DNA of 64,000 bases. It comes from Paraburkholderia hospita. Lineage in GTDB: Bacteria; Pseudomonadota; Gammaproteobacteria; Burkholderiales; Burkholderiaceae. The stretch lies in contig NZ_CP026106.1 of the NCBI RefSeq assembly GCF_002902965.1, positions 806,001 to 870,000 of the forward strand. The letters run 5' to 3'. Made by a program: the position numbers and the translations under genes. Below the pieces are notes generated by a model. The model was not told the origin of the DNA and searched no databases. It worked only from the letters and a program-made list of their open reading frames with translations. Positions 23,202-38,851 of this stretch are shown piece after piece; the first letter of the stretch is position 1, and each line of letters opens with the position of its first letter.

Positions 23202-23240
23202 GTTTTTGTCTGCGACCCTTTGATGTTGGGTGGTTTGGGT

Positions 23241-23911
23241 TTGCGCTGGCATCCGCGTTATGCCTTCGCGCTTCACGCGTCGCCCCTGTGCGGGGCGGCA
23301 CCTACTTTTCTTTGCCGCCGCAAAGAAAAGTAGGCAAAAGAAAGCGGCTAACACCGCCAGTTCTAGTTCTTGCCTGAGGGCCCCCAAACGGTCCCACGCT
23401 TCATACGGCAACGCCCTTGTTCGCGTGCGTTGCCAACGCTCTGAACAGACGCATCACCCGCTTCAGACTCCCGCACAAAGGCAAGCGGCAGCGAATGGTT
23501 TCCGCCGTCCAGGTGGCAAACTGTGTGTAGGTTGTCGCGTCGTATAGCTTGGCGCTCTTACAGGGCGGCATGCGTGCGCTATTGGTCCGAAGTGATGCGT
23601 GTGCACTGCTACAGCCTACACACAGTTTGCCACCTGGGCGGCAGTGGATTATCTGGCGTGGCATGTGGCGACGAGGGCGCGTGAAGCGGGTGATGCGTCA
23701 ATTAAGAGCGTTGGCAACAAACATGAGTCACGTGGTTGCCGTGTGAAGCGAGGGACCGGTTGGGGGCCCTCAGGCAAGAAGAAATGTTGGCGGTGTGAGC
23801 CGCTTTCTTTTGCCTACTTTTCTTTGCGGCGGCAAAGAAAAGTAGGTGCCGCCCCGCACAGGGGCGACGCATGAAGCACGAAGGCATAGCGCGGATGCCA
23901 GCACAAAAGCC
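23241..23911. repeat. Dispersed long-palindrome element, copy A
   Basis: A 0.67-kb imperfect palindrome. Outer arms 23281-23349 and 23798-23866 are a perfect 69-bp inverted repeat; each contains its own 15-bp stem hairpin (23301-23334, CCTACTTTTCTTTGC around CGCC). Similarity between the arms continues inward, with small differences, past TTCTTGCCTGAGGGCCCCCA and GACGCATCACCCGCTTCA. The inner arms 23510-23531 and 23615-23636 are a perfect 22-bp inverted repeat around an 83-bp loop. Both ends carry the short motif CGCTGGCATCCGCG or its complement. A second copy is at 38032-38810. Minus-strand 23401-23664 is an open frame of 87 codons also present in copy B; whether it is translated is unclear. 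It lies between convergent genes. Confidence 0.9.
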
Positions 23912-24030
23912 AGACCAACCCCAAACCGCCCGCGCCGCGAAAGGCAGTACGCGGATGCCCGCGCAAATCTAAACCACGCAACATCAAAGCGTGCGCAGCA
24001 AACACACTTCGCGGATGCCAGCGCAAAGCC
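23889..24030. repeat. Short tandem GCGGATGCCAGC repeats beside copy A
   Basis: The motif GCGGATGCC[A/C]GCGCAAA occurs at 23891, 23951 and 24011, exactly 60 bases apart. The same motif, complemented, stands at the left edge of copy A (23243-23257). The spacers differ, so these are degenerate repeat units rather than a CRISPR array. Confidence 0.75.
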
Positions 24031-24065
24031 ATAAAACCCAACCCTGCGTCGCAGACAAAAAAAAC

Positions 24066-24794
24066 TCACTTCCGCCTCGCGGTAACCTGCTGCCCCTTCT
24101 CAGTAATAACCGAAGCAAACTCCTCGATCTTCGAGAACCGAACCGCCTTAACAACACCAAACTTACTACTATCAACCACGAGATGACTCTCGACAGCCGC
24201 CGCCATCGCGGCCTGTTTCAGAGCGACTTCATGAAAATTCCAGCACGTCACGCCGTGCGCATCATCAACGCCACCGGCGGAAATAAACGCCTTATTGATC
24301 CCCATGCGCCGAAGCACCTCGATGCTTTCTTCGCCCGAAAACGAATCCGACGACGGCACATAAACACCGCCCAGAAGAATCATCCGCACATTGGGCTTGC
24401 GCCGCAAAATCTCCGCAACGTTCAGCGAATAGCAGACAATCGTCACATGCAGATCGTTAGGGATCAGCCGCGCGAGCGTAGTAAGCGTCGTACCGCAGTC
24501 GATAAATAGCGTCTCGTTGTTCCCGATCAGCTTCGCCGCCACAGCCGACGCCTCCGCCTTGGCCTGCGCGAAGTGGTCCTTTTCCTGTTCCAGCGAATAG
24601 CCAGCCGTGTTCGGCACGTCCGTCGCGCTGACGATATAGCCGCCCAGATACGTGAAATGTCCCGGGCTCGCAGCAATGTCCCGGCGTACCGTCATCTCCG
24701 ATACGCCCAGCAGCGTCGCCGCGTCGCGCAGGCGCATCACGCTCTGTTTGGCCAGCGCATCGGCGAGCATGCGCAGACGTTCAGTTTTCAGCAT
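24066..24794 (-). CDS. DeoR family transcriptional regulator
   Basis: The 242-residue protein has the DeoR winged helix (RLRMLADALAKQSVMRLRDA, then SEMTVRRDI) and the sugar-phosphate-sensing DeoRC domain (IGNNETLFIDCGTTLTTLAR, and the GGVYVPSSDSFSGEESIE block). DeoR repressors respond to phosphorylated sugars such as deoxyribose-5-phosphate. It lies downstream of, and convergent to, the deoxyribose-type operon. A 21-base stretch upstream of it matches one upstream of deoC at 18 positions, so it probably represses both. The start at 24794 follows a GAAGAGA stretch. Confidence 0.9.
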   Translation of the reverse strand: MLKTERLRMLADALAKQSVMRLRDAATLLGVSEMTVRRDIAASPGHFTYLGGYIVSATDVPNTAGYSLEQEKDHFAQAKAEASAVAAKLIGNNETLFIDCGTTLTTLARLIPNDLHVTIVCYSLNVAEILRRKPNVRMILLGGVYVPSSDSFSGEESIEVLRRMGINKAFISAGGVDDAHGVTCWNFHEVALKQAAMAAAVESHLVVDSSKFGVVKAVRFSKIEEFASVITEKGQQVTARRK

Positions 24795-25104
24795 GGGGAT
24801 GGTCTCTTCAACGCGATGTTGAGCCGAGATGGCGCGTTAGATTTTGTTCGATTTCATGAGAAGATTATAACAAGCATGTGCCCGACCGGCTGATGAATTT
24901 GCTCAATTTGCGGGCATTCCCCAACATCGCGTCCATGTCGGCGTCGGTGTCCATATCGAGGCGATGAAAACCCAGAACGCGTCAGATTTCGCCTATGTCG
25001 ATTGCTTGGAAAAGCGGGGCATTCCACTTATTCTGACTTGAGCGCCCGGGAACTGATGACGTGCCGCCCGGTCTTCTGCTTAATTCAAATCAGGAGCCAC
25101 ATCC
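24795..25104. other. Divergent intergenic region
   Basis: About 310 bases between the DeoR-type gene and the DoxX gene. It contains the shared motif at 24855-24875 and the ribosome site before DoxX (CAGGAGCC near 25090). I see no gene in the rest. Confidence 0.4.
24855..24875 (-). promoter_or_regulatory. Candidate promoter/operator of the DeoR-type gene
   Basis: On the minus strand this reads CTTGTTATAATC...CTCATG after a leading G, containing a perfect TATAAT -10 box. It agrees with the deoC-upstream stretch at 18 of 21 positions. The most likely meaning is a DeoR binding site overlapping each -10 element, giving repression and autoregulation. Confidence 0.55.
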
Positions 25105-25542
25105 ATGACGCGTCCCGTCGATTCCGGCGTAATTCTTCTTGCCCGCCTTGCGCTTGCCGTGCTGTTCCTTTGGGGCGGCGTAATGAAGCTGCTCGGCTAT
25201 GCGGGCTTCGTCGGTTATCTGCATTCGAAAGGCGTGCCGTTCGTGCAGGTCGCCGCGCCGATTGCGACGGCCGTCGAGGTGCTCGGCGGACTCTTCCTCG
25301 TCGTCGGCTTCAGGATCCGCGCGCTCGGCCTGTTCATGGCCGCCTATACGATCGCGACGGCCGTCCTCGGACACGACTTCTGGAACATCACCGACGCTGC
25401 CTTGCAGCGCGACATGATCATTCATTTCTGGAAGAACGTCGGCATCGCGGGCGGATTTTTGCTGCTGTTCGTGACGGGCGCGGGACGTTTCAGCATCGAC
25501 GGCGCGCGCGCGCCACGCGGCGGCCTGGGCAGCAGCCTGTGA
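25105..25542 (+). CDS. DoxX family membrane protein
   Basis: The 145-residue protein has four predicted membrane helices and the DoxX pattern: an N-terminal VILLARLALAVLFLWGGVMK and the central TAVEVLGGLFLVVGFRIRAL with GHDFWNI. DoxX proteins are small inner-membrane proteins of mostly unknown role, sometimes linked to thiol or redox stress. The ATG at 25105 is preceded by CAGGAGCC. A small orphan gene follows on the same strand about 140 bp downstream. Confidence 0.85.
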   Translation: MTRPVDSGVILLARLALAVLFLWGGVMKLLGYAGFVGYLHSKGVPFVQVAAPIATAVEVLGGLFLVVGFRIRALGLFMAAYTIATAVLGHDFWNITDAALQRDMIIHFWKNVGIAGGFLLLFVTGAGRFSIDGARAPRGGLGSSL

Positions 25543-25679
25543 TCGTTGCGCGTGCAGCGGCACGGAGCGGCACAAAAGCGGCAATAAGCGGGCCCTCCGT
25601 TGCGAGGCTGCCGCCAGAGCGGGCATCATTCGTGCAGCATCGATATCTGGCAAGCCAATTCGACTAAAAGGAGCACGCG

Positions 25680-25952
25680 ATGATTCAAGCTTTTGACCAA
25701 ACGATCAACGGCACGGTCATGCAGTTTTGCGCGAGCCTCGGCGAAGGGCCGACGCCGCATCGTGTGATCATCAGCCGGGCCGATACGGCCGAAACGCTGG
25801 TGATCCTCGATGCAGCCGGATTGATCAGCTCGATCAAGGCGGAAATCGAACAGCCGGAGACACTCGTCGCCGACGCGATCCGCAAGGTGCAGAGCGAAGG
25901 GCTCATCGAAAGGGCGCTCGATACGGGCGCGATTCAGGAGACGACGCTGTAA
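25680..25952 (+). CDS. Conserved small protein of unknown function
   Basis: A 90-residue soluble protein with no domain I recognise. It is acidic, without signal peptide or membrane helix, and predicted to be mixed alpha/beta (VIISRADTAETLVILDAAGL). AAAAGGAG lies well placed before the ATG, and a strong terminator follows, so it appears to be a real, separately ended gene. It may be cotranscribed with the DoxX gene upstream. Confidence 0.65.
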   Translation: MIQAFDQTINGTVMQFCASLGEGPTPHRVIISRADTAETLVILDAAGLISSIKAEIEQPETLVADAIRKVQSEGLIERALDTGAIQETTL

Positions 25953-25976
25953 CGTCTGCTACCGCTTCTGGCAAAA

Positions 25977-26016
25977 CAACACCCACGATGCCGCGTGCAT
26001 CGTGGGTGTTGTGTTT
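25977..26016. terminator. Bidirectional intrinsic terminator
   Basis: A stem of about 15 bp (25977-25991 with 25997-26011, core ACACCCACGATGC) closes a five-base loop. TTTTT follows on the plus strand and the preceding AAAA gives a T-run on the minus strand. It separates convergent genes at 25680-25952 and 26036-27520. Confidence 0.9.
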
Positions 26017-26035
26017 TTGGCGTGTCATGCGTGTG

Positions 26036-27520
26036 TCATTTGCTGGCGTTCGCAGGCCGTGCGCCGTTGCGGCCAGCGCGCGCCCGATCGCGCGCGTGCG
26101 GCTCGGGATGCACGAGACACGCGAGCCCGAGCGCGCACAGCAGGATGCACGACGAGATCAGCGTCGACGATCTGAGGCCGGCCACCACCTGCGCTGCGCC
26201 CGCCGCATCCGACGCGCTCGCGAGCGCGCCGAACGCCGCCACGCCGACTGCGCCGCCCGCCTGCCGTGCCGTGTTCAGAACCGCCGACGCGGTGCCCGCG
26301 CGCTGCTTGTTGACGGAAGCGAGCACGGCCGTGGTCATCGCCGGAACGGCGAGGCCCATGCCGGACGGAATCAGCAGAAACGGCACCAGCAACGTCCAGA
26401 GCGGTGAAGCGGCTTGTGCGAAGTGCAGCAGCCCGTAGCCGAGGGCAGCCGTGATTGCGCCCGCGATCATCGGCACCCGCGCGCCGAAGCGCCCGATCAC
26501 CCAGCCGCTCGCCACATTCGAGACCAGGAATCCGCCCGTCAGCGGCAGGAACGCGAGACCGGCCTGCAACGGCGTCTCGCCGCGCGCATGCTGCAGATAA
26601 AGGCTCAGCACGAACACGACGCCGTAGTAAGTCAGATTTACGCAGATACCGAACAGCACGGCCGCGCTGAAGGTGCGGTTGCCGAAGAACGTGAGCGGCA
26701 GCATCGGCATATCGACGCGCCGCTCGGTGACGACGAACGCGATCGCGGCGATCAGCGCGAGCATGAAGCTGCCACAAACGAGCGGATGCGCCAGCCCGAG
26801 CGGCCGCCATTCGATCACGGCGCCCGTGAAGGCCGTCAGCGCGACGACCGCGAGCAGCTGGCCGACGGGATCGATGCCGCGCGCGGTTGAAGTCGTCCTG
26901 GCGCTATCAGGCGCTTTATCGGACGAGGCGGCTCGCGGACGCGGCACCCACGCGAAAGTCGCGGCGAGCCCCAACGCGCAGATGGGCAGATTCACCAGAA
27001 AGATCGCGCGCCAGCCGAGCGCAGCGATCAGCAGTCCGCCGATCACCGGGCCCGCCGCAATCGCGATTGCGCCCGCCGCCGTCCACAGGCCGACGGCGCG
27101 GGCGCGCAGCTTCGGATCGTGGCTGCACGCCTCGTTGAGCAACGCGAGCGAATTGGGCAGCATCGCGGCCGCGCCCACCCCTTGCACGGCGCGTGCGGCG
27201 ACGAGCAGCGCGGCGCCCGATGCGAGCCCGCAGGCCAGCGAAGCCGCCGCGAACAGCGCGATGCCGCACGCGAACATCCGGCGCGCGCCGAAGCGGTCGC
27301 CCAGCACGCCTGCCGACAGCATCAGCACCGCGAACGCGAGCGTGTACGCATCGACGATCCATTGCAGGCCCGTGACGTTTGCATGCAGATCCGCGCCGAT
27401 CTTTGCGAGCGCGATGTTGACGATGGTCACGTCGAGTTGCGTGACGACGAAGCCGACGCTTACCGTCGCGACGATGCGCGCGAGCGCCGGCGTGAAGCGG
27501 GGTACAGGAGAAGTATTCAT
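26036..27520 (-). CDS. MFS transporter, DHA2 (14-helix) drug-efflux type
   Basis: The product of about 494 residues is a 14-helix major-facilitator protein like EmrB/LfrA. Motif D1 is seen in QLDVTIVNIALAKIGADL, motif A in GVLGDRFGARRM, and motif C-like glycine/proline helix in AGPVIGGLLIAALGWRAIFL. Such proteins export drugs or toxic compounds by proton antiport. The ATG at 27520 (MNTSPVPRF) is preceded by AGGAGAAGT; the frame is open to 27619. No adjacent regulator suggests a specific substrate. Confidence 0.88.
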   Translation of the reverse strand: MNTSPVPRFTPALARIVATVSVGFVVTQLDVTIVNIALAKIGADLHANVTGLQWIVDAYTLAFAVLMLSAGVLGDRFGARRMFACGIALFAAASLACGLASGAALLVAARAVQGVGAAAMLPNSLALLNEACSHDPKLRARAVGLWTAAGAIAIAAGPVIGGLLIAALGWRAIFLVNLPICALGLAATFAWVPRPRAASSDKAPDSARTTSTARGIDPVGQLLAVVALTAFTGAVIEWRPLGLAHPLVCGSFMLALIAAIAFVVTERRVDMPMLPLTFFGNRTFSAAVLFGICVNLTYYGVVFVLSLYLQHARGETPLQAGLAFLPLTGGFLVSNVASGWVIGRFGARVPMIAGAITAALGYGLLHFAQAASPLWTLLVPFLLIPSGMGLAVPAMTTAVLASVNKQRAGTASAVLNTARQAGGAVGVAAFGALASASDAAGAAQVVAGLRSSTLISSCILLCALGLACLVHPEPHARDRARAGRNGARPANASK

Positions 27521-27599
27521 GCGTCGATGATAGGGCGGCCCTGCCATGCGACGTTTCGGACCGGCTTGAAGTGTCGATGGGACGACCAGTCCTTGCGGG

Positions 27600-27627
27600 C
27601 AAGTGGCGTGCCTGCGCACGCCACTTG
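27600..27627. terminator. Hairpin after the MHS transporter gene
   Basis: CAAGTGGCGTGC (27600-27611) pairs perfectly with GCACGCCACTTG (27616-27627) around a four-base loop, just past the minus-strand stop at 27635. No T-run follows, so it may stop transcription only weakly or protect the 3' end. Confidence 0.6.
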
Positions 27628-27634
27628 AACAGCG

Positions 27635-28942
27635 TTACTGCGCGGCGTCCTTCTTCACGAAGCACGCGGTCAGCGCGCCGATCACGCACAGCGCGCCGAC
27701 GTAGAGCGCGGGCGCCATCGGATTCGACTTCAGCATCAGCGAAACGACGATCGGCGTCAGGCCGCCGAACACCGCGTACGCGACGTTGTACGAGAACGAG
27801 ATGCCCGAGAAGCGCACGACAGGCGGGAACGCGTTGACCATCACGAACGGCACCGCGCCGATCACGCCGACGAACAGGCCCGCGACGGCGTACAGCGGCA
27901 CGAGCATCGCGCTATCGACGGCGAGTTGCTGGAACAGCACGTAATACGCGATACCGAGCCCCACGCAGCCGACGAAAATCGTGCGGCCCGCGCCGAAGCG
28001 CCCCGCGAGCGAGCCCGCCAGCACGCAGCCGATCGTCAGGAACAGCGTCGCGATGCTGTTGGCGAAGAGTGCCGTCGCCGGCGCGATGTGAAACTGCTTT
28101 TGCAGCAGCGTCGGCGTCATCAGGATCACGACGACGATTGCGGCCGACAGCATCCACGTCAGCAGCATCGACACGATCACGGCGCGGCCGTGATCGCGCA
28201 GCACGGCCTTCAGCGGAATTTCCGCAGCCAGCGACTTGCGCTGCTTCATTTCGGCGAACACGGGCGTCTCGTGCAGCCAGCGGCGCAGATACACCGAGAA
28301 CAGGCCGAACACGCCGCCGAGCAGGAACGGGATGCGCCATGCGAAATCCGCGATTTCAGTAGCCGCGAAGTGGCGATTTACCGCCGACGCGACCAGCGAG
28401 CCGAGCAGGATGCCCGCCGTCAAGCCCGCTGTCAGCGTGCCGCACGCATAGCCGACGTGGCGCTGCGGCACGTGCTCGGAGACGAACACCCACGCGCCCG
28501 GCACTTCGCCGCCGACGGCCGCGCCCTGCATCACGCGGAACAGGAGCAGCAGCACGGGCGCCATGATGCCGATGCTCGCGTAGGTGGGCAGCATGCCCAT
28601 CATCAGCGTGGGCAGCGACATCAGCAGCACGCTCAGCGTGAACATGCGCTTGCGGCCGAGCAGGTCGCCGAAGTGCGCCATGATGATGCCGCCCAGCGGC
28701 CGCGCCAGATAACCGGCGGCGAAGATGCCGAAGGTCTGCAACTGGCGCAGCCAGTCGGGAATCGACTGCGGGAAGAACAGCTGTCCGATCGCCGGGGCGA
28801 AGAATACGAAGATGATGAAGTCGTAGAACTCGAGCGCGCCGCCGAGCGCGGCGAGGCTGAGCGTCTTGTAGTCGTGGCGGGTCAGAGGACGCGCGTGCGC
28901 GCTGTCCCTGGCGTGTGGTCTACCCAGTTCGGTTGCTTGCAT
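27635..28942 (-). CDS. MFS transporter, metabolite:H+ symporter (MHS) family
   Basis: The product of about 435 residues is a 12-helix symporter of the MHS group (ProP/KgtP/ShiA-like), which imports small carboxylates, betaines or shikimate. Typical blocks are ALEFYDFIIFVFFAPAIGQ in helix 1, GGIIMAHFGDLLGRKRMF in loop 2-3 and RVMQGAAVGGEVPGA in helix 4-5. The ATG at 28942 (MQATELGRPH) puts the first helix at the usual place; the frame is open to 29128. The substrate is not evident. Confidence 0.88.
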   Translation of the reverse strand: MQATELGRPHARDSAHARPLTRHDYKTLSLAALGGALEFYDFIIFVFFAPAIGQLFFPQSIPDWLRQLQTFGIFAAGYLARPLGGIIMAHFGDLLGRKRMFTLSVLLMSLPTLMMGMLPTYASIGIMAPVLLLLFRVMQGAAVGGEVPGAWVFVSEHVPQRHVGYACGTLTAGLTAGILLGSLVASAVNRHFAATEIADFAWRIPFLLGGVFGLFSVYLRRWLHETPVFAEMKQRKSLAAEIPLKAVLRDHGRAVIVSMLLTWMLSAAIVVVILMTPTLLQKQFHIAPATALFANSIATLFLTIGCVLAGSLAGRFGAGRTIFVGCVGLGIAYYVLFQQLAVDSAMLVPLYAVAGLFVGVIGAVPFVMVNAFPPVVRFSGISFSYNVAYAVFGGLTPIVVSLMLKSNPMAPALYVGALCVIGALTACFVKKDAAQ

Positions 28943-29206
28943 TGCCTGTCGTTGTATGAATAGAAGAGCCGCGCGTTGCGCGCGGAGTACGGCGGTCGTC
29001 AGGCGGGAAGTGCGGCAGTGCCGGGTAGGGCACGGGACACGGCACGCCGGCCCGGATAGGGTGGCGTGATGACGATTTTGGCCAGCCCGCGATTTTACAG
29101 GATGTAATTTGTCGCAGAACCTTTGCAAATTCGGACAAGTCTTATGGGCTTAACGATACAGCGTGAACAGAATCGCGATCCTGGACCAATTGTCGAGGAC
29201 TCAACC

Positions 29207-29932
29207 ATGCGTATCGCCATTCTTCAACGTGACCTCGTGCAGGGTAAGTTGCTGGAAAAAATCATCGTTCAGGCTGGCCACAGTTGCGTCGTGTACGACG
29301 ACGGCCTGACGCTCTCCAAGGTGCTCGCCCGCTCGACGGTCGATCTGCTGATTCTCGACTGGCACGCGCTGCGTCTGTCGGGCACGGACGTGCTCAAGGC
29401 GGTTCGCTCGGTAGGCGGCGAGCGCATGCCCGTGATGTTCGCTTCGGCGGATGGCTCGGAAGAAAGCGCTGTGCGCGCGTTCGTGCTGGGCGCCGACGAC
29501 TACGCCACGCTGCCCGTGCGGCATGCCGAGTTTCGCGAGCGCCTGTCCGCGCTGCTGCGCCGCGCGTATCCGGAACGCTACGGCAAGGACAGCTTCGACG
29601 TCGGGCCGTATCATTTCGACACCCGTCGTCAGCTGGTCACGCTGCGCGGCGCGCCCGTGCAGTTGTCGGGTACGCAGTACCGGCTGGCGTCGCTGTTCTT
29701 TTCGAACATCGGCCGCGTGCTGTCGCGCGATCACATCTTCGCGATGGTCTGGGGCCGCGAGTTTCGCGAGGTGACGCGCACGATCGACAGCCACGTGTCG
29801 CGCCTACGCGTGCTGCTGCAGATTGAGCCGCAAAACGATTTCCGTCTGCAGCCCGTGTACAAGAGCGGCTATCGCCTGCTGCATCTGCGCACGAACGAAA
29901 CTGCCGTTGTGCCGCATGCGGAAGCGGCCTGA
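29207..29932 (+). CDS. Orphan OmpR/PhoB-type response regulator with atypical receiver
   Basis: The 241-residue protein has an N-terminal receiver and a C-terminal OmpR-type winged helix (RTIDSHVSRLRVLL, GYRLLHL). The phosphate-accepting Asp is present (LLILDWHA, residue 51). However, the conserved Lys usually found in the K-P pair after the fifth strand is replaced: the sequence reads DDYATLPVRHAEF. The acidic pair near the N-terminus is also reduced to one Asp (LQRD). No histidine kinase is adjacent. It may act without normal phosphorylation, or with altered switching. The ATG at 29207 follows GAGGAC; an upstream frame opening at 29123 lacks support. Confidence 0.85.
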   Translation: MRIAILQRDLVQGKLLEKIIVQAGHSCVVYDDGLTLSKVLARSTVDLLILDWHALRLSGTDVLKAVRSVGGERMPVMFASADGSEESAVRAFVLGADDYATLPVRHAEFRERLSALLRRAYPERYGKDSFDVGPYHFDTRRQLVTLRGAPVQLSGTQYRLASLFFSNIGRVLSRDHIFAMVWGREFREVTRTIDSHVSRLRVLLQIEPQNDFRLQPVYKSGYRLLHLRTNETAVVPHAEAA

Positions 29933-29952
29933 GCGGATTTAAGCTGTTCTGG

Positions 29953-29990
29953 CGGCGGCTACCTGTGGAAGGAAGCCGCCGTTTTCTTTT
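29953..29990. terminator. Intrinsic terminator between convergent genes
   Basis: CGGCGGCT (29953-29960) pairs with AGCCGCCG (29974-29981), followed on the plus strand by TTTTCTTTTT. It ends the response-regulator transcript. Confidence 0.8.
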
Positions 29991-30008
29991 TGCTTCCCGC
30001 GTTCGTGC

Positions 30009-30914: not shown

Positions 30915-31271
30915 GACTGCTCTCCTGAAAGTGATGAGTCGAGTGCAGTGTAAGCATGGAATATTCGGATGTCTTGCGCGAATCGCGCGTTTCGCGTGAC
31001 GATTTCGGCATAGCGGCTGTGCGAGAGGAATCCCTGATTTACGATGCTTTCGATGTTTAGCTTCCGTCCTGCCCGGCCTCCATCCGTCGAACGCCGCAGG
31101 ATCGATACCGCTTCCGTGCGCGATGCAACCGCGCTCCACTTGCTCGATGAGTCGCCCGGCCGCAGTCTGAATGCGGGCTGCATCCGCATTCTTCGGGCTA
31201 TGCTGAAATCGTCACAATCCACGCGCAGCCGCTTCAAGACTGCGCGCCGCCGCGTTTCTACCATGAGCGGC
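30915..31271. promoter_or_regulatory. Divergent control region of the hydroxyproline genes
   Basis: About 355 bases between the deaminase and the epimerase starts, expected to hold both promoters and the target of the AraC-type regulator. CGCGAA (30977-30982) and TTCGCG (30991-30996) form an inverted repeat with an eight-base spacer. No other clear site or gene is visible. Confidence 0.4.
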
Positions 31272-32228
31272 ATGAAAACCTTGAACGTCATCGATTCGCA
31301 CACGGGCGGTGAACCGACCCGCCTCGTGGTGTCCGGCGGCCCCGACCTCGGCGGCGGCACGCTCGCGCAACGGCTCGACGTGTTTCGCGCGCGCTTCGAC
31401 GACTGGCGCGCGGGCATCGTCACCGAGCCGCGCGGCTCGGATGTGGTGGTCGGCGCGCTGTTGTGCGAGCCGGATCGCAAGGAGTGCGCGGCGGGCGTGA
31501 TCTTCTTCAACAACGTCGGCTATCTGGGCATGTGCGGGCACGGCACGATCGGCCTCGTTGTGTCGCTTGCGCATATGGGAAGCATTGGGCCGGGCCGGCA
31601 TCTGATCGACACGCCGGTCGGCATCGTCGAGGCGACGCTCAACGACGATCTCAGCGTGTCGGTGCGCAATGTGCCTGCATACCGGCATCGCAAGGACGTG
31701 ACCGTCGACGTGCCCGGCTTCGGCCCGCTGACGGGCGATATCGCGTGGGGCGGCAACTGGTTCTTTCTCGTCGCGAACCATGCACGCACGCTGGACGCGT
31801 CGAACATTCCCGAGCTCACGCACTTTACCTCGACGATCCGTGACGCGCTGATCGCGGCGGGCATCACGGGGGCGAACGGCGCGCTGATCGACCACATCGA
31901 GCTGTTCGGGCCGGGCTCGCGCGAAGGTATCGACAGCCGCAGCTTCGTGCTGTGCCCCGGCAACGCATACGACCGCTCGCCGTGCGGCACGGGCACGAGC
32001 GCGAAGGTTGCATGCCTCGCCGCCGACGGCAAGCTTGCGGCGGGAACGGTGTGGCGGCAGGAGAGCATCATCGGCAGCGTGTTTGAAGCGACCTATGCGG
32101 AAGGCGGCACGCTGGACGGCATCGCGACCGTCATTCCGACCATCACCGGGCACTCGCACATCATGGCCGAGAGCCGCCTTTGCTTCGACGAGCGCGATCC
32201 GTTCGCGTGGGGCATCCGGACGGTATGA
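31272..32228 (+). CDS. 4-hydroxyproline 2-epimerase (proline racemase family)
   Basis: The enzyme of about 318 residues inverts the alpha-carbon of trans-4-hydroxy-L-proline to cis-4-hydroxy-D-proline. Both catalytic cysteines are visible: MCGHGTIG and [10 protein letters not shown]; the pair distinguishes racemases/epimerases from the dehydratase branch. The N-terminal [11 protein letters not shown] and [12 protein letters not shown] near the C-terminus are family blocks. The ATG at 31272 is chosen; 31263 is a near alternative, and the frame is open from 31044. It overlaps the following dehydrogenase gene by four bases. Confidence 0.9.
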
Positions 32229-33352
32229 CGGCGGATGTCGTGATCGTCGGCGCGGGTATCGTCGGCGCGGCGTGCGCAGCGGAACTCGCCGCGCGTGGGC
32301 TGCGCGTAACGGTGCTCGATGCGCAGGGTATCGGCGGCGGTGCGACGGCGGCGGGCATGGGGCATATCGTCGTGATGAACGACTCGCCGGCGGAATTCGC
32401 GTTGAGCCGCTATTCGCGCGACTTGTGGCTCGAACTTGCGCCGCAGTTGCGAACGCGCGATGCGTTTGCGCGCTGCGGCACGCTGTGGGTCGCATCCGAC
32501 GCTGAAGAACTCGACGCCGCGCGTGAGATGCATGCCGGCTTCGTCGCGCAGGACGTCGCGGCGCAACTGCTCGACGAGCACGCGCTCTACGACTGTGAGT
32601 CGTCGCTCGCACCGGGCATGGCGGGCGGCTTGCTCATCGGCCACGACAGCATCGTGTATGCGCCGTCTGCTGCACAATGGCTGCTCACGCAATCGCCCGG
32701 CGCTGCGCGGATCGACGTGCGGCTGCAGGCGCAAGCCGTGGCCGTCGATGCGCAACACGTCACGCTGTCGAATGGCGAGCGCGTCGGCGGCGCGCACATC
32801 GTCGTCGCGAACGGATTGCAGGCGCGTGAACTCGTGCGCGGCTTGCCGTTGCAGCCTAAAAAAGGCCATTTGCTGATCACCGACCGCTATCCCGGTTTCA
32901 TCCGCCATCAACTGCTCGAACTCGGCTATATCAAGAGCGCCCATCACGCGACGGGAACATCCGTCGCGTTCAACGCGCAGCCGCGGCCGACGGGACAACT
33001 GCTGATCGGCTCGTCGCGCCAGTTCGACACCACCGACGCAGCCGTCGAAATGCCCGTGCTCGCGCAGATGCTGCAGCGCGCGGCGCGTTATCTGCCCGCA
33101 TTGCCGACGCTCAACGGCATTCGCGCATGGACGGGCTTTCGTGCGGCATCGCCGGATGGCTTGCCGCTGATCGGACCTGCGGGCGGCACGGCACCCGGCG
33201 TGTGGCTCGCGGTCGGCCATGAAGGACTGGGTGTGACGACGTCGCTCGGTACCGCGCAGTTGCTCGCCGCGCAGATCACGCAGACAGCGGCTGCCATTGC
33301 TGTCGATCCGTTTCTGCCTGCGCGTTTCGAGTTTGGGGCGTGTCATGTCTGA
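32225..33352 (+). CDS. D-hydroxyproline dehydrogenase, DAO-type FAD subunit
   Basis: The 375-residue flavoprotein belongs to the D-amino-acid-oxidase/glycine-oxidase family, with the dinucleotide motif [18 protein letters not shown] at the N-terminus and [16 protein letters not shown] at the C-terminus. Together with the two following genes it matches the three-subunit D-hydroxyproline dehydrogenase seen in pseudomonads, which oxidises cis-4-hydroxy-D-proline to a pyrroline. Its ATG overlaps the epimerase stop, and its own stop overlaps the next start. Confidence 0.88.
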
Positions 33353-33617
33353 ATCGGTTCTTCCACGCGTACGCGTCACGATCGACGGCGAGCCTGTCGC
33401 GATCGAGCAGGGCGCCACCATCGCCGCTGCACTGGCGGTGTGCGGTGGGAGCGCATACGGCACGCGCGGGTCCGTCACTGGCGAGCCGCGCGCGCCGATG
33501 TGCGGCATGGGCGTGTGCCAGGAATGCCGCGTGACGGTCGATGGACGCATGCATGTGCTCGCATGTCAGACCGTGTGCCGCGACGGCCAGATCGTGCAAA
33601 CGACGAGGCCGCGATGA
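33345..33617 (+). CDS. (2Fe-2S)-binding subunit of D-hydroxyproline dehydrogenase
   Basis: This 90-residue protein is a small ferredoxin-like subunit. The cluster-binding cysteines are seen as MCGMGVCQECRV and LACQT. In the heteromeric dehydrogenase it bridges the two flavoprotein subunits. It overlaps both neighbours by a few bases, which implies translational coupling and equal subunit supply. The ATG at 33345 is used; the frame is open from 33297. Confidence 0.9.
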   Translation: MSESVLPRVRVTIDGEPVAIEQGATIAAALAVCGGSAYGTRGSVTGEPRAPMCGMGVCQECRVTVDGRMHVLACQTVCRDGQIVQTTRPR

Positions 33618-34906
33618 ACGGTCAGCACTTCGACGTCGTCGTCGTGGGTGCGGGGCCGGCGGGTCTCGCTGCCGCTTGCGAGGCGGCGAAAACGGGCGCG
33701 CGCGTCGCCGTGCTCGACGACAATCCTCGCGCGGGCGGCCAGGTATGGCGCAATGGCCCCGCGCATCCCCCATCGGATGAATTGGCCGCGCTTCTGCATG
33801 AGATCCAGGCAAGCGGCAACGTGGCGCTCGCGTCTGCGGCGCGAATCATTGCGCCGCTCGACAAAGGCTGTCTGCTGATCGAATCGGCGGAGCAAGGCGG
33901 CGCGTGCATCGGCTACGACCGCCTGATTCTTGCCACGGGCGCACGTGAACTGCTGTTGCCGTTCGACGGCTGGACGTTGCCCGGCGTGACGGGCGCAGGC
34001 GGCTTGCAGGCATTGATCAAGGGCGGCATGCCTGTGCGCGGCGAGCGCATCGTGATTGCGGGCAGCGGTCCGTTGCTGCTCGCGTCTCTCGCGACCGCGC
34101 GCGCGGCAGGCGCGCGGGTCGTGGCCGTGGTCGAGCAGGCATCGTTGGCGTCGGTGATGCGCTTTGGCGTGTCGCTTGCGGCAACGCCCACGAAGCTCGT
34201 GCAAGCTGCTCAACTGACGCGCGGTTTTGCCGGGCTTCGTTATATGACGTCGAGCGTGGTGCGCGCGGCGCAGGGTAGTGGACATGTCGAGCGCGCGATC
34301 GTCGAACGCGCGGGCGGACGCATGGAGACGATCGATTGCGATCGCATCGCTTGCGGCTACGGCCTCGTGCCGAACACGACGCTCGCTCGCGCGCTGGGCT
34401 GCGCGACGCGCGCCGACGGTGCGATCGCCGTCGATGAAGCGCAGCGCACGTCCGTCGCAAACATCTTCGCGGCGGGCGAATGTGTGGGCGTCGGCGGGAT
34501 GGAGCTTGCGCGGGTGGAAGGGCGGCTTGCGGGGCTTGCGGCCGTGGACGTCCAGCATGGCGAACCCGTCGAGCAACTGAGACGGGAACGCGCGCGCTGG
34601 CAGGGTTTCGCAGCGCGCGTCGAGTCGGCATTCGCGTTGCGCGACCACGCGCGCCAACTACCCGCCGACGACACATTGCTATGCCGTTGCGAAGATGTAT
34701 CGGTCGGCGAGGTCCGGGCGCATGCGAACTGGCGCGACGCGAAGTTGCACACGCGCTGCGGAATGGGCGCATGTCAGGGCCGCATTTGCGGCGGTGCGGC
34801 GCAGGCGTTGCTCGGCTGGGATGTGACGCAGGTTCGTCCGCCTATCCACCCGGCGCAGATCGCCACGCTGATCCTTGCGGCCGATGAGGATACGGCCGCG
34901 CATTGA
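33614..34906 (+). CDS. D-hydroxyproline dehydrogenase, pyridine-nucleotide-oxidoreductase-type subunit
   Basis: The 430-residue flavoprotein starts with VVVVGAGPAGLAAACEAA (FAD) and has a second nucleotide motif in RIVIAGSGPLLLASLATARA. A C-terminal BFD-like domain adds another iron-sulphur site: LLCRCEDVSVGEV and RCGMGACQGRICGG. This is the layout of the large subunit of opine/D-hydroxyproline dehydrogenases. The ATG overlaps the stop of the small subunit gene. Electrons probably pass from the DAO-type subunit through the ferredoxin-like subunit to an acceptor. Confidence 0.88.
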   Translation: MNGQHFDVVVVGAGPAGLAAACEAAKTGARVAVLDDNPRAGGQVWRNGPAHPPSDELAALLHEIQASGNVALASAARIIAPLDKGCLLIESAEQGGACIGYDRLILATGARELLLPFDGWTLPGVTGAGGLQALIKGGMPVRGERIVIAGSGPLLLASLATARAAGARVVAVVEQASLASVMRFGVSLAATPTKLVQAAQLTRGFAGLRYMTSSVVRAAQGSGHVERAIVERAGGRMETIDCDRIACGYGLVPNTTLARALGCATRADGAIAVDEAQRTSVANIFAAGECVGVGGMELARVEGRLAGLAAVDVQHGEPVEQLRRERARWQGFAARVESAFALRDHARQLPADDTLLCRCEDVSVGEVRAHANWRDAKLHTRCGMGACQGRICGGAAQALLGWDVTQVRPPIHPAQIATLILAADEDTAAH

Positions 34907-35061
34907 CCCGCCCGTCCGCGAGAAAAAAGCCAAGGCGCGCGCATCGAACGCATTGACGCAAGATTTTTTCGCCCGCCACGCGCCGCCCTATAATCGATCA
35001 GCCCGCGACACCCGCCGGGGCAATCTTCACGCTCTCGCAGTCCATGCACGGAACCCTCACG

Positions 35062-35838
35062 ATGAACACGTTCGCTTCTACGCTTGACGCGCTCGATTCG
35101 GGTGAGGCGTCGCTGGCCGGGATGCTCTCGCATTTCGCGCTGCTCGAACCCGTTTTCGACGCGATGCCCGATATCGTGTTCTTCGTGAAGGACGCGCAGG
35201 CGCGCTACGCGCTCGTCAATCGGACGCTGGTGTCGCGCTGCGGATTCAAGGAGAAAGAAAAGCTGCTTGGCAAGACGGCGGAAGACGTGTTTCCGAGCCG
35301 CTTCGGCCGCATCTACACGGCGCAGGACAAGGCTGTGATTCATGTCGGCAACCAGATGGTCGATCAGCTGGAACTGCATCTGTATCCGGGCCGGCAGCCG
35401 GGCTGGTGCCTGACCTGCAAGCAGCCGTTGCGCGACGCGGCGGGGCGAGTGGTCGGGCTGGCGGGCATTTCGCGCGATCTGCGCGCCGATGAAATCAGCC
35501 ACCCCGCGTATAGCCGGCTCGCGACGGTCGTGCAGCATCTGCAAGAGAACTATGTTCAGCCGCTGAATTTGAAGCAGCTTGCCGCGATGGCGGATATGTC
35601 GGTTGCGCAACTCGAGCGGTATTTTCACAAGGTATTTCACCTGACGCCGCGCCAGGTGCTGCTGAAGACCCGGCTCGATGCGGCGACCGCGTTACTTGTA
35701 TCGCACGACAAGGTCACCGATGTCGCCGCCCTGTGCGGCTATACAGATCACAGTGCGTTCACGCGGCAATTCAAGGCGACCGTCGGCGTCACGCCGACCG
35801 AATACCGGATGCTGTTGCACGGCACCTCGCGCAACTAA
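35062..35838 (+). CDS. AraC family regulator with N-terminal PAS domain
   Basis: The protein of about 258 residues has a PAS domain (about 35-145; VFDAMPDIVFFVKDAQARY and the RDAAGRVVGLAGISRD end) joined to a double helix-turn-helix AraC domain (LKQLAAMADMSVAQLERYF, DVAALCGYTDHSAFTRQFK). PAS-AraC fusions are less common than cupin-type AraC proteins. Directly after the dehydrogenase genes, it likely controls the hydroxyproline cluster in response to an unknown ligand. The ATG at 35062 is preferred; 35044 is in frame. Confidence 0.85.
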   Translation: MNTFASTLDALDSGEASLAGMLSHFALLEPVFDAMPDIVFFVKDAQARYALVNRTLVSRCGFKEKEKLLGKTAEDVFPSRFGRIYTAQDKAVIHVGNQMVDQLELHLYPGRQPGWCLTCKQPLRDAAGRVVGLAGISRDLRADEISHPAYSRLATVVQHLQENYVQPLNLKQLAAMADMSVAQLERYFHKVFHLTPRQVLLKTRLDAATALLVSHDKVTDVAALCGYTDHSAFTRQFKATVGVTPTEYRMLLHGTSRN

Positions 35839-35943
35839 CTGTCAATTCCGCCCAGCGACATCGAGCAAAAACAAATCAGCGATTTGCTGCGCTTGCGGTC
35901 AGAAGCCAGTCACAAGCAGCCAGATATAAGCCGCCAGAGAACG

Positions 35944-36279
35944 ATGCCTGCCCGCCGCGCAAAGCTTCGCTACTACGTTTACGTGGTCGCGCTCGACGAT
36001 ACCGTCTGGAACGAGGCACGCTTCCGACGCGCGAATCCCGACTATCGGTTCGAACGGCCGTGCGTGTATGTGGGTATGACCGGGCTGGACCCGGACTTGC
36101 GCTTCGACCGTCACAAAGCGGGCATTCAGTCGAATCGCTATGTGCGCGACTATGGCTTGCGGCTGATGCCGGAACTGTACGAAGTCTTCAATCCCCTGCC
36201 GTACGACGGCGCGCGAGACATGGAAGTCGAACTGGCGATCGGCTTGCGCGAAGCAGGGTATGGCGTGTGGCAGGCGTAA
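35944..36279 (+). CDS. Small GIY-YIG-like protein
   Basis: The 111-residue protein shows a pattern compatible with the GIY-YIG nuclease fold: YYVYVVALDD (GIY-like strand), CVYVGMTG (YIG-like strand), RFDRHKAGIQSN with the usual Arg and His, and a late Glu in ARDMEVELAIG. An insertion of about 15 residues separates the two strands. It is a single-domain protein and no repair or restriction partner is adjacent. A nuclease role is possible but unproved. The ATG at 35944 gives the N-terminus MPARRAKLRYY; the frame opens at 35884. Confidence 0.6.
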   Translation: MPARRAKLRYYVYVVALDDTVWNEARFRRANPDYRFERPCVYVGMTGLDPDLRFDRHKAGIQSNRYVRDYGLRLMPELYEVFNPLPYDGARDMEVELAIGLREAGYGVWQA

Positions 36280-36321
36280 TTTCGCAGGGCGAGACCCGCC
36301 GAAAAACGGGATGTGCTGGGC

Positions 36322-36636
36322 TTACTTGACGCCGAGTCCGCGCAAAATCGCGTTGCCTTCTGGCGTCAGGCGAATGTGTGATTCACCCGCATCCGTGGCG
36401 ATGCTTTCGACGAGCCCGGCTTCCTGCAGCGTCGGAATCTCCGGCTTGGCGAACGCAGCCATAGGCGCGTGCAGCAACAGCAGCATCGTTGCAAGCTCAT
36501 GCGGGCTGAGGAGCCGGCGGAGAATGGTCGTCTTTTTAGGCGGCGCTGCTTTCGCGGCGGCGGCTTGCGCGGATGCGGCCGGAGTGTCGGTCGCGATGCG
36601 CGTCGTCGGGTCGTTGCGGTCTTTGTAGTAATCCAT
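36322..36636 (-). CDS. Hypothetical protein with winged-helix-like C-terminus
   Basis: A 104-residue protein. The first third is low-complexity (Ala/Lys/Thr rich). The rest (LSPHELATMLLLLHAP..., IPTLQEAGLVESI, IRLTPEGNAILRGLG) resembles a short winged-helix segment, with a final beta hairpin typical of MarR/PadR-like folds. No function can be assigned. It is convergent with the GIY-YIG-like gene and separate from the lipoprotein gene upstream. Confidence 0.6.
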   Translation of the reverse strand: MDYYKDRNDPTTRIATDTPAASAQAAAAKAAPPKKTTILRRLLSPHELATMLLLLHAPMAAFAKPEIPTLQEAGLVESIATDAGESHIRLTPEGNAILRGLGVK

Positions 36637-36773
36637 CCTGGCACCTGGGTGGAACGCGGGTCAGTGTGAAGGACGAATACTGGCAGCGCAGACTTAAACG
36701 ATTCTTAAGCCATCCGCCTTCGGGCGGCGGGAAGTTGTTACATCCAGTTACGCCGCCGCGTTTGCGAGCGGCC

Positions 36774-37112
36774 TCAGGGCGCGCATTCCTTGCTCGCGCT
36801 TTCGATCCATAGGTTCGACGTGTTGCGTTTGCCCGCGTAGTAGCGGAACGTCGTGCCGCCGTTGTCGGCGCGGACCTTGACGATGTTGGACTCGCCGAAA
36901 TCGAGCATCTGGCCTTGCGGAATGGGCGTGGCCTTGACGGGCGTGTCGTGCTTCGCGGCGGCCTGGGTCATGCACTGGATGACGTCGTTGACGGGGCGAT
37001 TCGTCATGTTGTCCTTCATCGGATCGCCGGCATCCGGGTTGTGAGACGCCTGATATTGCGCGCAAGCGGCGAGCAGCATCGGGATGGACAGGGTGACGGC
37101 TAGCTTCTTCAT
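36774..37112 (-). CDS. Small outer-membrane-type lipoprotein
   Basis: The 112-residue protein begins with a lipoprotein signal (MKKLAVTLSIPMLLAAC), Cys at 17 being the lipidated residue. The mature part is hydrophilic with a single further cysteine pair (IQCMTQ, SKECAP). CCAGAAGGAGACTC supports the ATG at 37112. No domain is recognised; such small lipoproteins are common in this group and may be envelope-associated. Confidence 0.75.
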   Translation of the reverse strand: MKKLAVTLSIPMLLAACAQYQASHNPDAGDPMKDNMTNRPVNDVIQCMTQAAAKHDTPVKATPIPQGQMLDFGESNIVKVRADNGGTTFRYYAGKRNTSNLWIESASKECAP

Positions 37113-37501
37113 GAGTCTCCTTCTGGTTGGCGGTGGGCGCCGCACGAGGCGTCGGATGAGGGACGGGCTCGTCGATGCGGAACCGCAAAACGTTCGGGAA
37201 ATTATATCGGTGCAAGCGGTGTGCCTGATTTTTTGCGGGCAATCAAGGTGGGGATTTCTTTTGCCGCTGGCGGTTTTATCGTTCAGCTTTGGTCTATTTG
37301 GTTAACTTACGTCTCTATGCTGTGTTCTGAATATGCGTATTTTTATATTAAAATAAAACTAACTAGATGGTACAAATGTAGTGAAAACCCCAAAAGACGC
37401 GCGTTGCGATGACGTGCAAACTTTGGCGCAGGTCGCGTCAGGTGCATCGGGAGCGGTTTTTGACGCGCTGTGTGGGGCACTATAGGGAGGGTTTTTTAGT
37501 C
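37113..37501. other. Intergenic region with AT-rich trough
   Basis: About 390 bases between divergent genes. Bases around 37290-37390 are far richer in A/T than anywhere nearby (for example TTTTTATATTAAAATAAAAC), suitable for promoter melting or H-NS binding. Several -10-like TATATT/TAAAAT strings occur. No gene is seen. Confidence 0.5.
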
Positions 37502-37948
37502 ATGAGTTTTGCGTCGGTGCTGGTTTTGAATGGCCCCAATCTCAACTTGCTTGGCACGCGAGAGCCGACGATCTACGGCGCGGAAACGCTCGACGATGTT
37601 GCGCGTCGCTGCCGCGAGGCAGGACAAAGACTCGGTCTTGCGATTGATTTTCGGCAGTCGAATGCCGAGCATCAGTTGATCGAATGGCTTCACGAAGTGC
37701 GTACGACGCAGCAGGGGATTGTGTTTAATCCTGCGGCTTACACGCATACTTCGGTGGCGATTGCGGATGCGCTGTCGGCGATTGGAAAGCCAGTGATTGA
37801 GGTGCATATCTCTAATGTTCACAAACGTGAAGCGTTTCGGCATCACTCGTATGTGTCCGCTGTCGCGGATGGGGTTATTTGTGGGTGTGGTACTCAGGGA
37901 TATGTGCTCGCTCTGGAAAGGATGGCGGAGATTTTGAAGTTGAGGTGA
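37502..37948 (+). CDS. aroQ: Type II 3-dehydroquinate dehydratase
   Basis: The 148-residue enzyme converts 3-dehydroquinate to 3-dehydroshikimate in aromatic amino-acid synthesis (or quinate breakdown). All type II blocks are present: [18 protein letters not shown] with the active Tyr, [31 protein letters not shown] and [17 protein letters not shown] with the catalytic His. GGGAGG precedes the ATG at 37502; an open frame to 37409 is unlikely to be used. A palindromic repeat region follows its stop. Confidence 0.93.
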
Positions 37949-38031
37949 TGCGCCTGCGCGGCGGTTTGGTTGTTGCCTTTGCGCTGGTGCTGCGAGGCGC
38001 GGGCGATGCCGGTTGGGGTTGTTGGCTTTTC

Positions 38032-38810
38032 TTCGCTGGCATCCGCGTATTGCCTTCGTGCTTCAAGCGTCGCCCCTGTGCGTTTGCCTTTTCGCTGGCA
38101 TCCGCGTTATGACTCACCCCTTCAAGCGTTGCCCCTGTGCGGGGCGGCACCTACTTTTCTTTGCCGCCGCAAAGAAAAGTAGGCAAAAGAAAGCGGCTCA
38201 CACCGCCAGCTCGTGTTCTTGTCCACGGGCCCCCAACGGCCCCACGCTTCACACGGCAACATCTTTGTTTGCGTGCGTTGCCAACGCTTCGAATGAGCGC
38301 CTCACCCGCTTCGAATACCCGTGCACGGGCAGGCGGCAGCGAATGGTTTGCGCCGCCCAGGTGGCAAACTGTGTGTAGGTTGTCGCGTCGTATAACCTTG
38401 CGCTCTTACAGGGTGGAACGCGTGCGCTATCGGTCCGGAGTGAGGCATGTGAGGCACTATGGCCTACACACAGTTTGCCACCTGGGCGGCGGTGGACTAT
38501 CTGGCACGGCAGACTGTAATGCAGGTGCGTGAAGTAGGTGAGACGCACCGCAAGAGCGCTGGCAACGAACATCAGTCACGTGATTGCCGTGTGAAGCGTA
38601 AGACCCTTTGGGGGCCCTCAGGCAGGGAGAAATGTTGGCGGTGTGAGCCGCTTTCTTTTGCCTACTTTTCTTTGCGGCGGCAAAGAAAAGTAGGTGCCGC
38701 CCCGCACAGGCGACGCGTGAACATCAAACACCATAACGCGGATGCCAGCGAAAAGCCAAACGCACAGGTGCGACACATGAAGCACGGAGGCAAAGCGCGG
38801 ATGCCAGCGA
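38032..38810. repeat. Dispersed long-palindrome element, copy B
   Basis: Same organisation and orientation as copy A, 15 kb away. Outer arms 38134-38208 and 38636-38710 are a perfect 75-bp inverted repeat containing the nested CCTACTTTTCTTTGC hairpins. Inner arms 38358-38379 and 38463-38484 are the same perfect 22-bp inverted repeat as in copy A, again around an 83-bp loop. The edges carry paired short motifs: CGCTGGCATCCGCG at 38034 and 38093, and its complement at 38737 and 38796. Minus-strand 38249-38572 is an open frame of 107 codons whose last 84 codons align without gaps to the frame in copy A. It lies between convergent aroQ and the TetR-type gene. Confidence 0.9.
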
Positions 38811-38851
38811 AAAGGCAAAAACCACCAAACCAGCGCTGCAAGCAAAACCAA

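What the first reader, a model, noticed from the sequence alone, without database searches (positions are those of the whole stretch)
23241..38810. Two copies of a 0.65-0.78-kb palindromic element 15 kb apart
Copies at 23241-23911 and 38032-38810 share the same plan: outer perfect inverted repeats (69 and 75 bp), partly matching middle arms, a 22-bp perfect inner repeat identical in both, and a loop of exactly 83 bp. No transposase is present. The preserved loop length and arm sequence despite many point differences suggest a maintained DNA or RNA structure, or a non-autonomous mobile element.
Basis: seen in the sequence. Interest (0 to 1): 0.72.

Follow-up and report, generated by a model that had tools for sequence, protein, structure and literature searches.

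The report
Palindromic repeats leaving a mutation footprint
The two palindromes belong to a large family of non-coding repeats in Paraburkholderia whose copies keep overwriting one another and whose neighbouring genes lose C and gain T on the DNA strand that points at the element, as if the chromosome were repeatedly broken and repaired there.

Summary
The two copies (23240-23907, 38032-38811) belong to a family: the window's genome (11.5 Mb) holds 300 copies of its 34-bp sub-palindrome, roughly 150 elements. In 1.26 Mb sampled I found 79 full ones, none in a predicted gene; 35 of 60 intact ones lie between convergent genes (127 of 943 pairs without element).

Pairing does not maintain the middle arms: arms of one copy match no better than arms shuffled among 61 copies. 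Instead the copies evolve in concert. At 16 sites shared with relative G053, orthologous elements are 0.836 identical, like non-orthologous ones (0.832) and below same-genome copies (0.889). Linkage among copies falls near background within 50-100 bp in three genomes.

The main finding lies in the flanks. On the strand reading toward the element, fourfold sites go from 6% T/41% C at 4.5-7 kb to 30% T/15% C within 500 bp of its centre. The bias mirrors on the other side, ignores fork direction, recurs in other Paraburkholderia and is mostly absent from element-free orthologues. This is the polarity of bidirectional resection at breaks.

Best reading: an old, fixed hotspot of breakage and gene conversion. 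Breaks are inferred, not shown.

The parts
23240..23907 (.). Element copy 1, whole palindrome (233-nt arms, 87% complementary)
23281..23297 (.). Copy 1 left terminal GC hairpin; mirror at 23850-23866
   Evidence: read; motif counts
23301..23334 (.). Copy 1 left 34-bp sub-palindrome; mirror copy at 23813-23846
23512..23531 (+). Copy 1 left inner repeat (20-nt core)
23532..23614 (.). Copy 1 loop, 83 nt
23615..23634 (-). Copy 1 right inner repeat (20-nt core)
38032..38811 (.). Element copy 2, whole palindrome
38150..38183 (.). Copy 2 left 34-bp sub-palindrome; mirror copy at 38661-38694
38351..38379 (+). Copy 2 left inner repeat (29 nt exact)
38380..38462 (.). Copy 2 loop, 83 nt
38463..38491 (-). 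Copy 2 right inner repeat
22155..23201 (+). Gene facing copy 1 with its 3' end (BPD_transp_2 permease); last 300 bp fourfold sites T22 C10 G30 A2
24066..24794 (-). Gene facing copy 1 with its 3' end (DeoR-type regulator); last 300 bp fourfold sites T15 C11 G25 A0
37409..37948 (+). Gene facing copy 2 with its 3' end (class II dehydroquinase); last 300 bp fourfold sites T13 C4 G29 A3
38852..39535 (-). Gene facing copy 2 with its 3' end (TetR-type regulator); last 300 bp fourfold sites T16 C4 G20 A3

Best explanation
The element is a non-coding palindromic repeat of about 700 bp, present at roughly 150 intergenic sites, mostly just past gene 3' ends, and acts as a recurrent site of DNA breakage or gapping followed by homologous recombination. 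Shown: (1) copies in a genome evolve in concert with short exchange tracts; (2) the strand that would be the surviving 3' overhang on each side of a break at the element (top strand on the left, bottom on the right) is depleted of C and enriched in T in a gradient reaching 1-2 kb; (3) the sign of the bias follows the element, not the gene direction or the replication fork. Inferred: breaks or gaps form at the palindrome; 5'-to-3' resection exposes the 3' strand; its cytosines deaminate; repair mostly copies the sister and sometimes another element copy, so the element is reset while its unique flanks keep the scars. Unknown: what makes the break; SbcCD, the E. coli palindrome nuclease, was not found over its model cut-offs in this genome.
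For: Fourfold sites toward the element: T .063 to .295, C .414 to .149, G and A nearly flat (79 elements). Same sign, about half the size, in genes pointing away (T .048 to .149 at 500-750 bp), so not simply transcription. Gene ends next to elements GT .617 (n=106) against .516 (n=141 element-free convergent 3' ends); 5'-facing sides .547 (n=29) against .501 (n=381) and .510 (n=153). Strand-specific: T/(C+T) .576 near.198 far; A/(A+G) .102 near.166 far. No fork effect (.473 n=43.466 n=42, p=.87). Replicated at 22 elements from other named genomes. Element-free purL orthologues C .346 T .062 against C .165 T .240 at 100-200 bp. Still accumulating between G000 and G053 (C/T to A/G differences 2.06 near, 1.44 far; divergence .109 near.053 far). 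Ectopic exchange: linkage decay in three genomes; orthologue below mean same-genome copy at 16 of 16 sites. Little strand bias inside the element, as expected if it is overwritten. Same polarity as yeast 'single-switch' clusters from bidirectional resection (PMC6786661, passages). RecC present.
Against: No break, ssDNA or RNA data. SbcD and SbcC have no match over cut-off, so no known palindrome nuclease is in hand. The bias is about twice as strong in genes pointing at the element as in genes pointing away, so transcription or strand-specific repair contributes. Some element-free orthologues have single bins with raised T (thrC: G049, G028, G021; purL: G068, G017, G097). For the nearest relatives thrC orthologues (.889 G107.868 G042) are more alike than G000's own thrC and purL copies (.845), and G042's two copies are only .786 alike. 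In E. coli a chronic palindrome break did not raise the rifampicin-resistance mutation rate (PMC4213011, passages), though that assay is away from the break. G/T differences are also raised near the element (218 against 47 A/C) and are not polarised.
Confidence: 0.5

Rival explanations
1. A REPIN/MITE-like non-autonomous transposon moved in trans and still transposing; similarity within a genome reflects recent bursts, and the flank bias comes from excision breaks.
For: High copy number, conserved ends with hairpins, patchy distribution (0 to 365 per genome in 117), interiors that differ between species with the same ends, one full-length RAYT-like Y1 ORF in the genome.
Against: Sites shared between species: downstream of thrC in 8 of 30 and purL in 9 of 30 loci, 16 sites G000/G053. 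Linkage among copies decays over tens of bp, which bursts do not give. No element motifs beside the Y1 gene within the fetched 1.5 kb. Target duplications not tested.
Confidence: 0.15
2. Mutation driven by transcription (non-template strand exposure or R-loops where polymerase stops at the element), not by breaks.
For: Stronger in genes pointing at the element; elements sit at 3' ends.
Against: Same sign in genes pointing away, where the biased strand is the template. Element-free convergent 3' ends show only a slight skew (GT .516, GC skew .087 in the last 100 bp). Does not explain ectopic exchange.
Confidence: 0.15
3. A bidirectional transcription terminator under selection; A/C-rich sequence beyond the element (seen by read-through transcripts) is selected as a Rho landing zone.
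For: Between convergent genes in 35 of 60; sequence past the element is C-rich and G-poor in the read-through direction (follows); element-free G005 has what look by eye like ordinary hairpin terminators at both loci.
Against: A smooth gradient at synonymous sites 1-2 kb into genes, also where a 5' end faces the element, is not needed for termination. Does not explain C-to-T specificity or concerted evolution. No RNA data.
Confidence: 0.1
4. The element prefers DNA that already has the skew.
For: Copies sit at 3' ends, where element-free convergent genes have a slight skew.
Against: Element-free purL and thrC orthologues mostly lack it; it mirrors about the element, and differences continue to accumulate.
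Confidence: 0.03

Closest known systems
REPINs / REP sequences with RAYTs (PMC3116915, passages read)
   Same: Many intergenic non-coding copies per genome, inverted pairs of hairpin-bearing ends.
   Different: Much longer (about 700 bp, variable palindromic interior); the only RAYT-like gene has no element motifs beside it; mirrored mutation gradient and ectopic exchange shown here.
MITEs and other small dispersed repeats (Correia, ERIC, RU types; recalled)
   Same: Short non-coding intergenic inverted-repeat elements without a transposase gene.
   Different: No matching autonomous element recognised; target duplications not tested; fixed positions.
246-bp interrupted palindrome cleaved by SbcCD in E. 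coli (PMC4213011, passages read)
   Same: A chromosomal palindrome as a chronic site of break and recombinational repair.
   Different: Engineered and single; here natural, roughly 150 copies, and SbcC/SbcD not found over cut-off.
Single-switch C/G mutation clusters at double-strand breaks in yeast (PMC6786661, passages read)
   Same: C mutated on one side and G on the other of a break, from bidirectional resection.
   Different: APOBEC-driven, within one experiment; here an evolutionary gradient in bacteria with C-to-T in all 16 trinucleotides.

Membership tests
REPIN (RAYT-mobilised REP doublet) | Inverted pair of conserved hairpin-bearing ends, many intergenic copies | tested here: met
REPIN (RAYT-mobilised REP doublet) | A RAYT gene flanked by the same repeat | tested here: not met
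   one full-length Y1 ORF, no element motif (up to 3 mismatches) within 1.5 kb; the two other Y1 matches carry a stop and also lack it
MITE | Terminal inverted repeats shared with an autonomous transposon | tested here: inconclusive
   No transposase in the element; IS110, IS481 and IS66 copies at the sites are insertions into the arms; ends not compared with all transposons of the genome
MITE | Target-site duplications / empty sites | not tested
   flanks too altered; element-free orthologues seen but no duplication analysis made
Structured RNA (Rfam) | Match to a described family | tested here: not met
   0 matches at gathering score
Structured RNA or maintained hairpin | Compensatory change between arms | tested here: not met
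   (middle arms; ends nearly invariant and so uninformative)
Recurrent break and gene-conversion site | Ectopic exchange between copies | tested here: met
Recurrent break and gene-conversion site | Mirrored strand-specific mutation footprint | tested here: met
Recurrent break and gene-conversion site | Physical breaks or ssDNA at the site | not testable with these tools
   needs break or RecA mapping

The most novel reading that the evidence does not exclude
Each element is a heritable, fixed recombination-initiation site in a bacterial chromosome. Roughly 150 per genome are broken and resected often enough to print a mirrored C-to-T gradient up to 2 kb into neighbouring genes, and they exchange sequence often enough to be homogenised genome-wide, in a genus in which most sampled genomes lack a recognisable SbcD and can therefore carry long palindromes.
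Probability: 0.4. Interest if true: 0.92.

Novelty: new variant of a known kind. Interest (0 to 1): 0.78.

Why it matters
It ties a non-coding repeat family to a directional mutation process that reshapes codon choice in adjacent genes, housekeeping ones included (purL, thrC), and offers natural, replicated sites with built-in controls (both sides, with and without element, many species). It makes testable how long palindromes persist without SbcCD, how resection mutates bacterial DNA, and how dispersed repeats homogenise. It also warns that local GC skew and codon bias near such repeats need not reflect selection on the gene.

Tried and rejected
SbcCD cleavage as the cause: not supported for this genome (no match over cut-off; the SbcC model is narrow, over cut-off in only 1 of 14 controls, so a divergent enzyme is not excluded). 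Fork stalling: no upstream/downstream difference (origin placed near the contig start from a GC-skew flip between 1.60 and 1.87 Mb). Arm pairing or RNA structure as the reason for conserved middle arms: rejected. Apparent loss of one arm on sides facing gene 5' ends: largely ISs inserted into the arm. RAYT-driven movement: not supported. A context signature of one deaminase: all 16 trinucleotides shifted (ln odds ratio 0.98 to 2.62), most at TCA and TCG, least at GCC and GCT, no single motif. Annotation in plasmid records: the table holds 1-3 features per record, none in the stretches fetched. Phage collection: no match. Literature: the listings of 10 searches showed no description of this element; only open-licence PMC is held. 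PMC3733652 was searched for Burkholderia, Paraburkholderia and Ralstonia: 0 occurrences. The first gene caller, the first orthologue script with unoriented loci and the first extraction of G043 copies (0 found) failed and were replaced. The random-position control has only 8 sides and is not relied on.

Limits: genes were called by a home-made codon model, whose four calls beside the window copies agree with Pfam. The 61 copies used for covariation and linkage are those of 556-569 nt among 79; 18 were dropped. G053 and G043 copies are the 30 best matches to the query, not a random set. The 16 G000/G053 sites come from stretches chosen because they hold elements, so the fraction of shared sites is not estimated; one of the 16 (L282) is mapped by one flank at 80% only; two more (L269, L280) could not be compared. 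Orthologue loci are the best 30 of 117 genomes for each of two genes. The 79 elements come from 60 stretches of 20 kb chosen around listed copies, plus the window.
Full report
OBSERVATION. Exact inverted repeats of 73 and 75 nt far exceed dinucleotide shuffles (maxima 22 and 18 of 200 each), and the 83-nt loop is in both. A DNA search of the own genome had 241 candidates, of which 40 were scored. The 34-bp sub-palindrome occurs 300 times with up to 2 mismatches (0 for the reversed-pattern control), the inner repeat 168 and 161 times by strand: roughly 150 elements. In the genus, 59 of 117 genomes have at least one sub-palindrome, with counts from 0 to 365. Seven large replicons of P. caribensis, P. 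largidicola and two unnamed Paraburkholderia species have 39-40 places each, an undercount.

ANATOMY. Sixty 20-kb stretches and the window contain 79 full elements and one fragment. The core is 562 nt in 34 of 61 aligned copies (range 557-565). From outside inward: a G/T-rich spacer with degenerate repeated modules, a GC hairpin, the 34-bp sub-palindrome, a middle arm of about 160 nt, the inner repeat and the loop. The terminal ~55 bp and inner ~20 bp are near-invariant; 20-column blocks of the middle arms are 75-91% conserved. No element lies inside a predicted gene. Of 60 elements with both sub-palindromes intact, 35 lie between convergent, 24 between co-directional and 1 between divergent genes; of 943 adjacent pairs without element, 127 are convergent (Fisher p=1e-14). 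Tolerance of insertions away from promoters would also give this, so it does not prove a function.

ARMS ARE NOT KEPT PAIRED. At the 146 arm pairs variable on both sides, within-copy Watson-Crick pairing is .562; dealing right arms among copies gives .567 +/- .003 (200 shuffles). Selection on a hairpin, or arm-to-arm conversion inside each copy, would raise the first number.

CONCERTED EVOLUTION. The element lies downstream of thrC in 8 and of purL in 9 of 30 orthologous loci. In seven genomes with full-length comparisons the thrC and purL copies of one genome are .79-.91 alike, whereas the same site in G000 and G043 is .727/.728 and in G000 and G020 .692/.723, although thrC itself is 89-96% identical in these genomes. 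Against this, for the nearest relatives orthologues are as close or closer: thrC G000-G107 .889 and G000-G042 .868, against .845 for G000's own two copies and .786 for G042's. In G095 only the ends align with G000; its interior does not, yet is part of a 533-nt match of 89% between its two sites; G080 has a third interior. At 16 sites shared by G000 and G053, in 0 of 16 is the orthologue more alike than the mean same-genome copy (means .836 and .889; non-orthologous G000 copies .832). Mean identity within G000, G053 and G043 is .845.891 and .881; G000-G053 .833, G000-G043 .717; the nearest neighbour is in the same genome for 60 of 61, 29 of 30 and 30 of 30 copies. Linkage among polymorphic columns falls with distance: r2 .162 under 10 bp to .025 beyond 200 bp in G000 (.017 expected if unlinked).207 to .033 in G053 and .200 to .034 in G043 (.034 expected). 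Dispersed copies thus recombine in short tracts.

THE FLANK FOOTPRINT. On the strand reading toward the element, coding DNA beside it is rich in G and T.617 in the last 100 bp of genes facing it with the 3' end (n=106) against .516 at 141 element-free convergent ends.547 (n=29) where a 5' end faces it, against .501 (n=381, co-directional) and .510 (n=153, divergent). At fourfold sites in genes pointing at the element C falls from .414 to .149 and T rises from .063 to .295, with G .476-.541 and A .032-.047. In genes pointing away the sign is the same and the size about half: T .048 to .149 at 500-750 bp. Around 22 elements from other named genomes T is .248 within 500 bp against about .065 far (toward), and .119 against about .05 (away). 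The bias is strand-specific: T/(C+T) .576 near.198 far; A/(A+G) .102 near.166 far. Sides before and behind the replication fork do not differ (.473, n=43.466, n=42; p=.87). Orthologous purL without the element mostly lacks it (100-200 bp: C .346 T .062, 433 sites; with element C .165 T .240, 200 sites); thrC likewise but more weakly (0-100 bp: C .259 T .065, 444 sites; with element C .086 T .137, 139 sites); a few element-free loci have raised T in single bins (thrC G049, G028, G021; purL G068, G017, G097). It goes on: between G000 and G053 (34 flank alignments) C/T to A/G differences are 2.06 at 300-600 bp and 1.44 at 1.2-1.7 kb, divergence .109 and .053, and G/T differences exceed A/C (218 to 47 near). 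The last may be damage to G on the same strand or T-to-G change; I did not polarise it.

INTERPRETATION. C lost from the top strand on the left and G lost from it on the right is the polarity that bidirectional 5'-to-3' resection gives; PMC6786661 states it for yeast single-switch clusters (passages). With ectopic exchange this points to recurrent breaks or gaps at the element, repaired by recombination: the element is overwritten from sister or other copies and shows little strand bias inside, while unique flanks keep the scars. RecC is present (2 matches over cut-off). SbcD and SbcC are not found over cut-off, so the E. coli mechanism (PMC4213011, passages) has no support here; their absence may be why the palindromes are tolerated. 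SbcD is over cut-off in 11 of 117 genus genomes, among them G043 and G018, which hold 216 and 95 sub-palindromes, so presence of SbcD does not exclude the repeat. What makes the break is open. Transcription or strand-specific repair adds to the bias but does not give the same sign in genes pointing away. A terminator role is compatible and untested.

WHAT IS NOT KNOWN. No break was observed; target duplications, RNA and phenotype are untested. Dispersal must once have involved copying or transposition; no mobiliser was recognised.

Noticed in passing
G000 C1, loci L143, L162, L172, L181, L186, L187, L189: An IS110-type insertion sequence sits at the same point and in the same direction within the 34-bp sub-palindrome in 7 of 7 junctions examined; IS481-type (3) and IS66-type (2) copies also interrupt it.
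   Followed up: partly
L207 (G021, downstream of thrC): No core element, only the outer modules arranged as a compact palindrome; looks like a collapsed element.
   Followed up: no
G000:C1:3659466-3659756 (L263): One full-length RAYT-like Y1 transposase ORF beside a gltB-like gene (name by eye), without element motifs within the fetched 1.5 kb.
   Followed up: partly
L021, L037, L038, L043, L048, L089 (Paraburkholderia sp. C35 draft contigs): Sub-palindromes lie within about 75 bp of contig ends, so the repeat breaks short-read assemblies and copy counts in drafts are low.
   Followed up: no
flanks of 30 G053 loci against G000: G/T differences on the strand toward the element are 218 near against 47 A/C; direction not determined.
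   Followed up: no
G000:C4:421923-425357 and C1:2247465-2250668: Two RecC matches over cut-off in one genome, the higher-scoring on the smaller contig C4, near a weak SbcD-like match at C4:415012.
   Followed up: no
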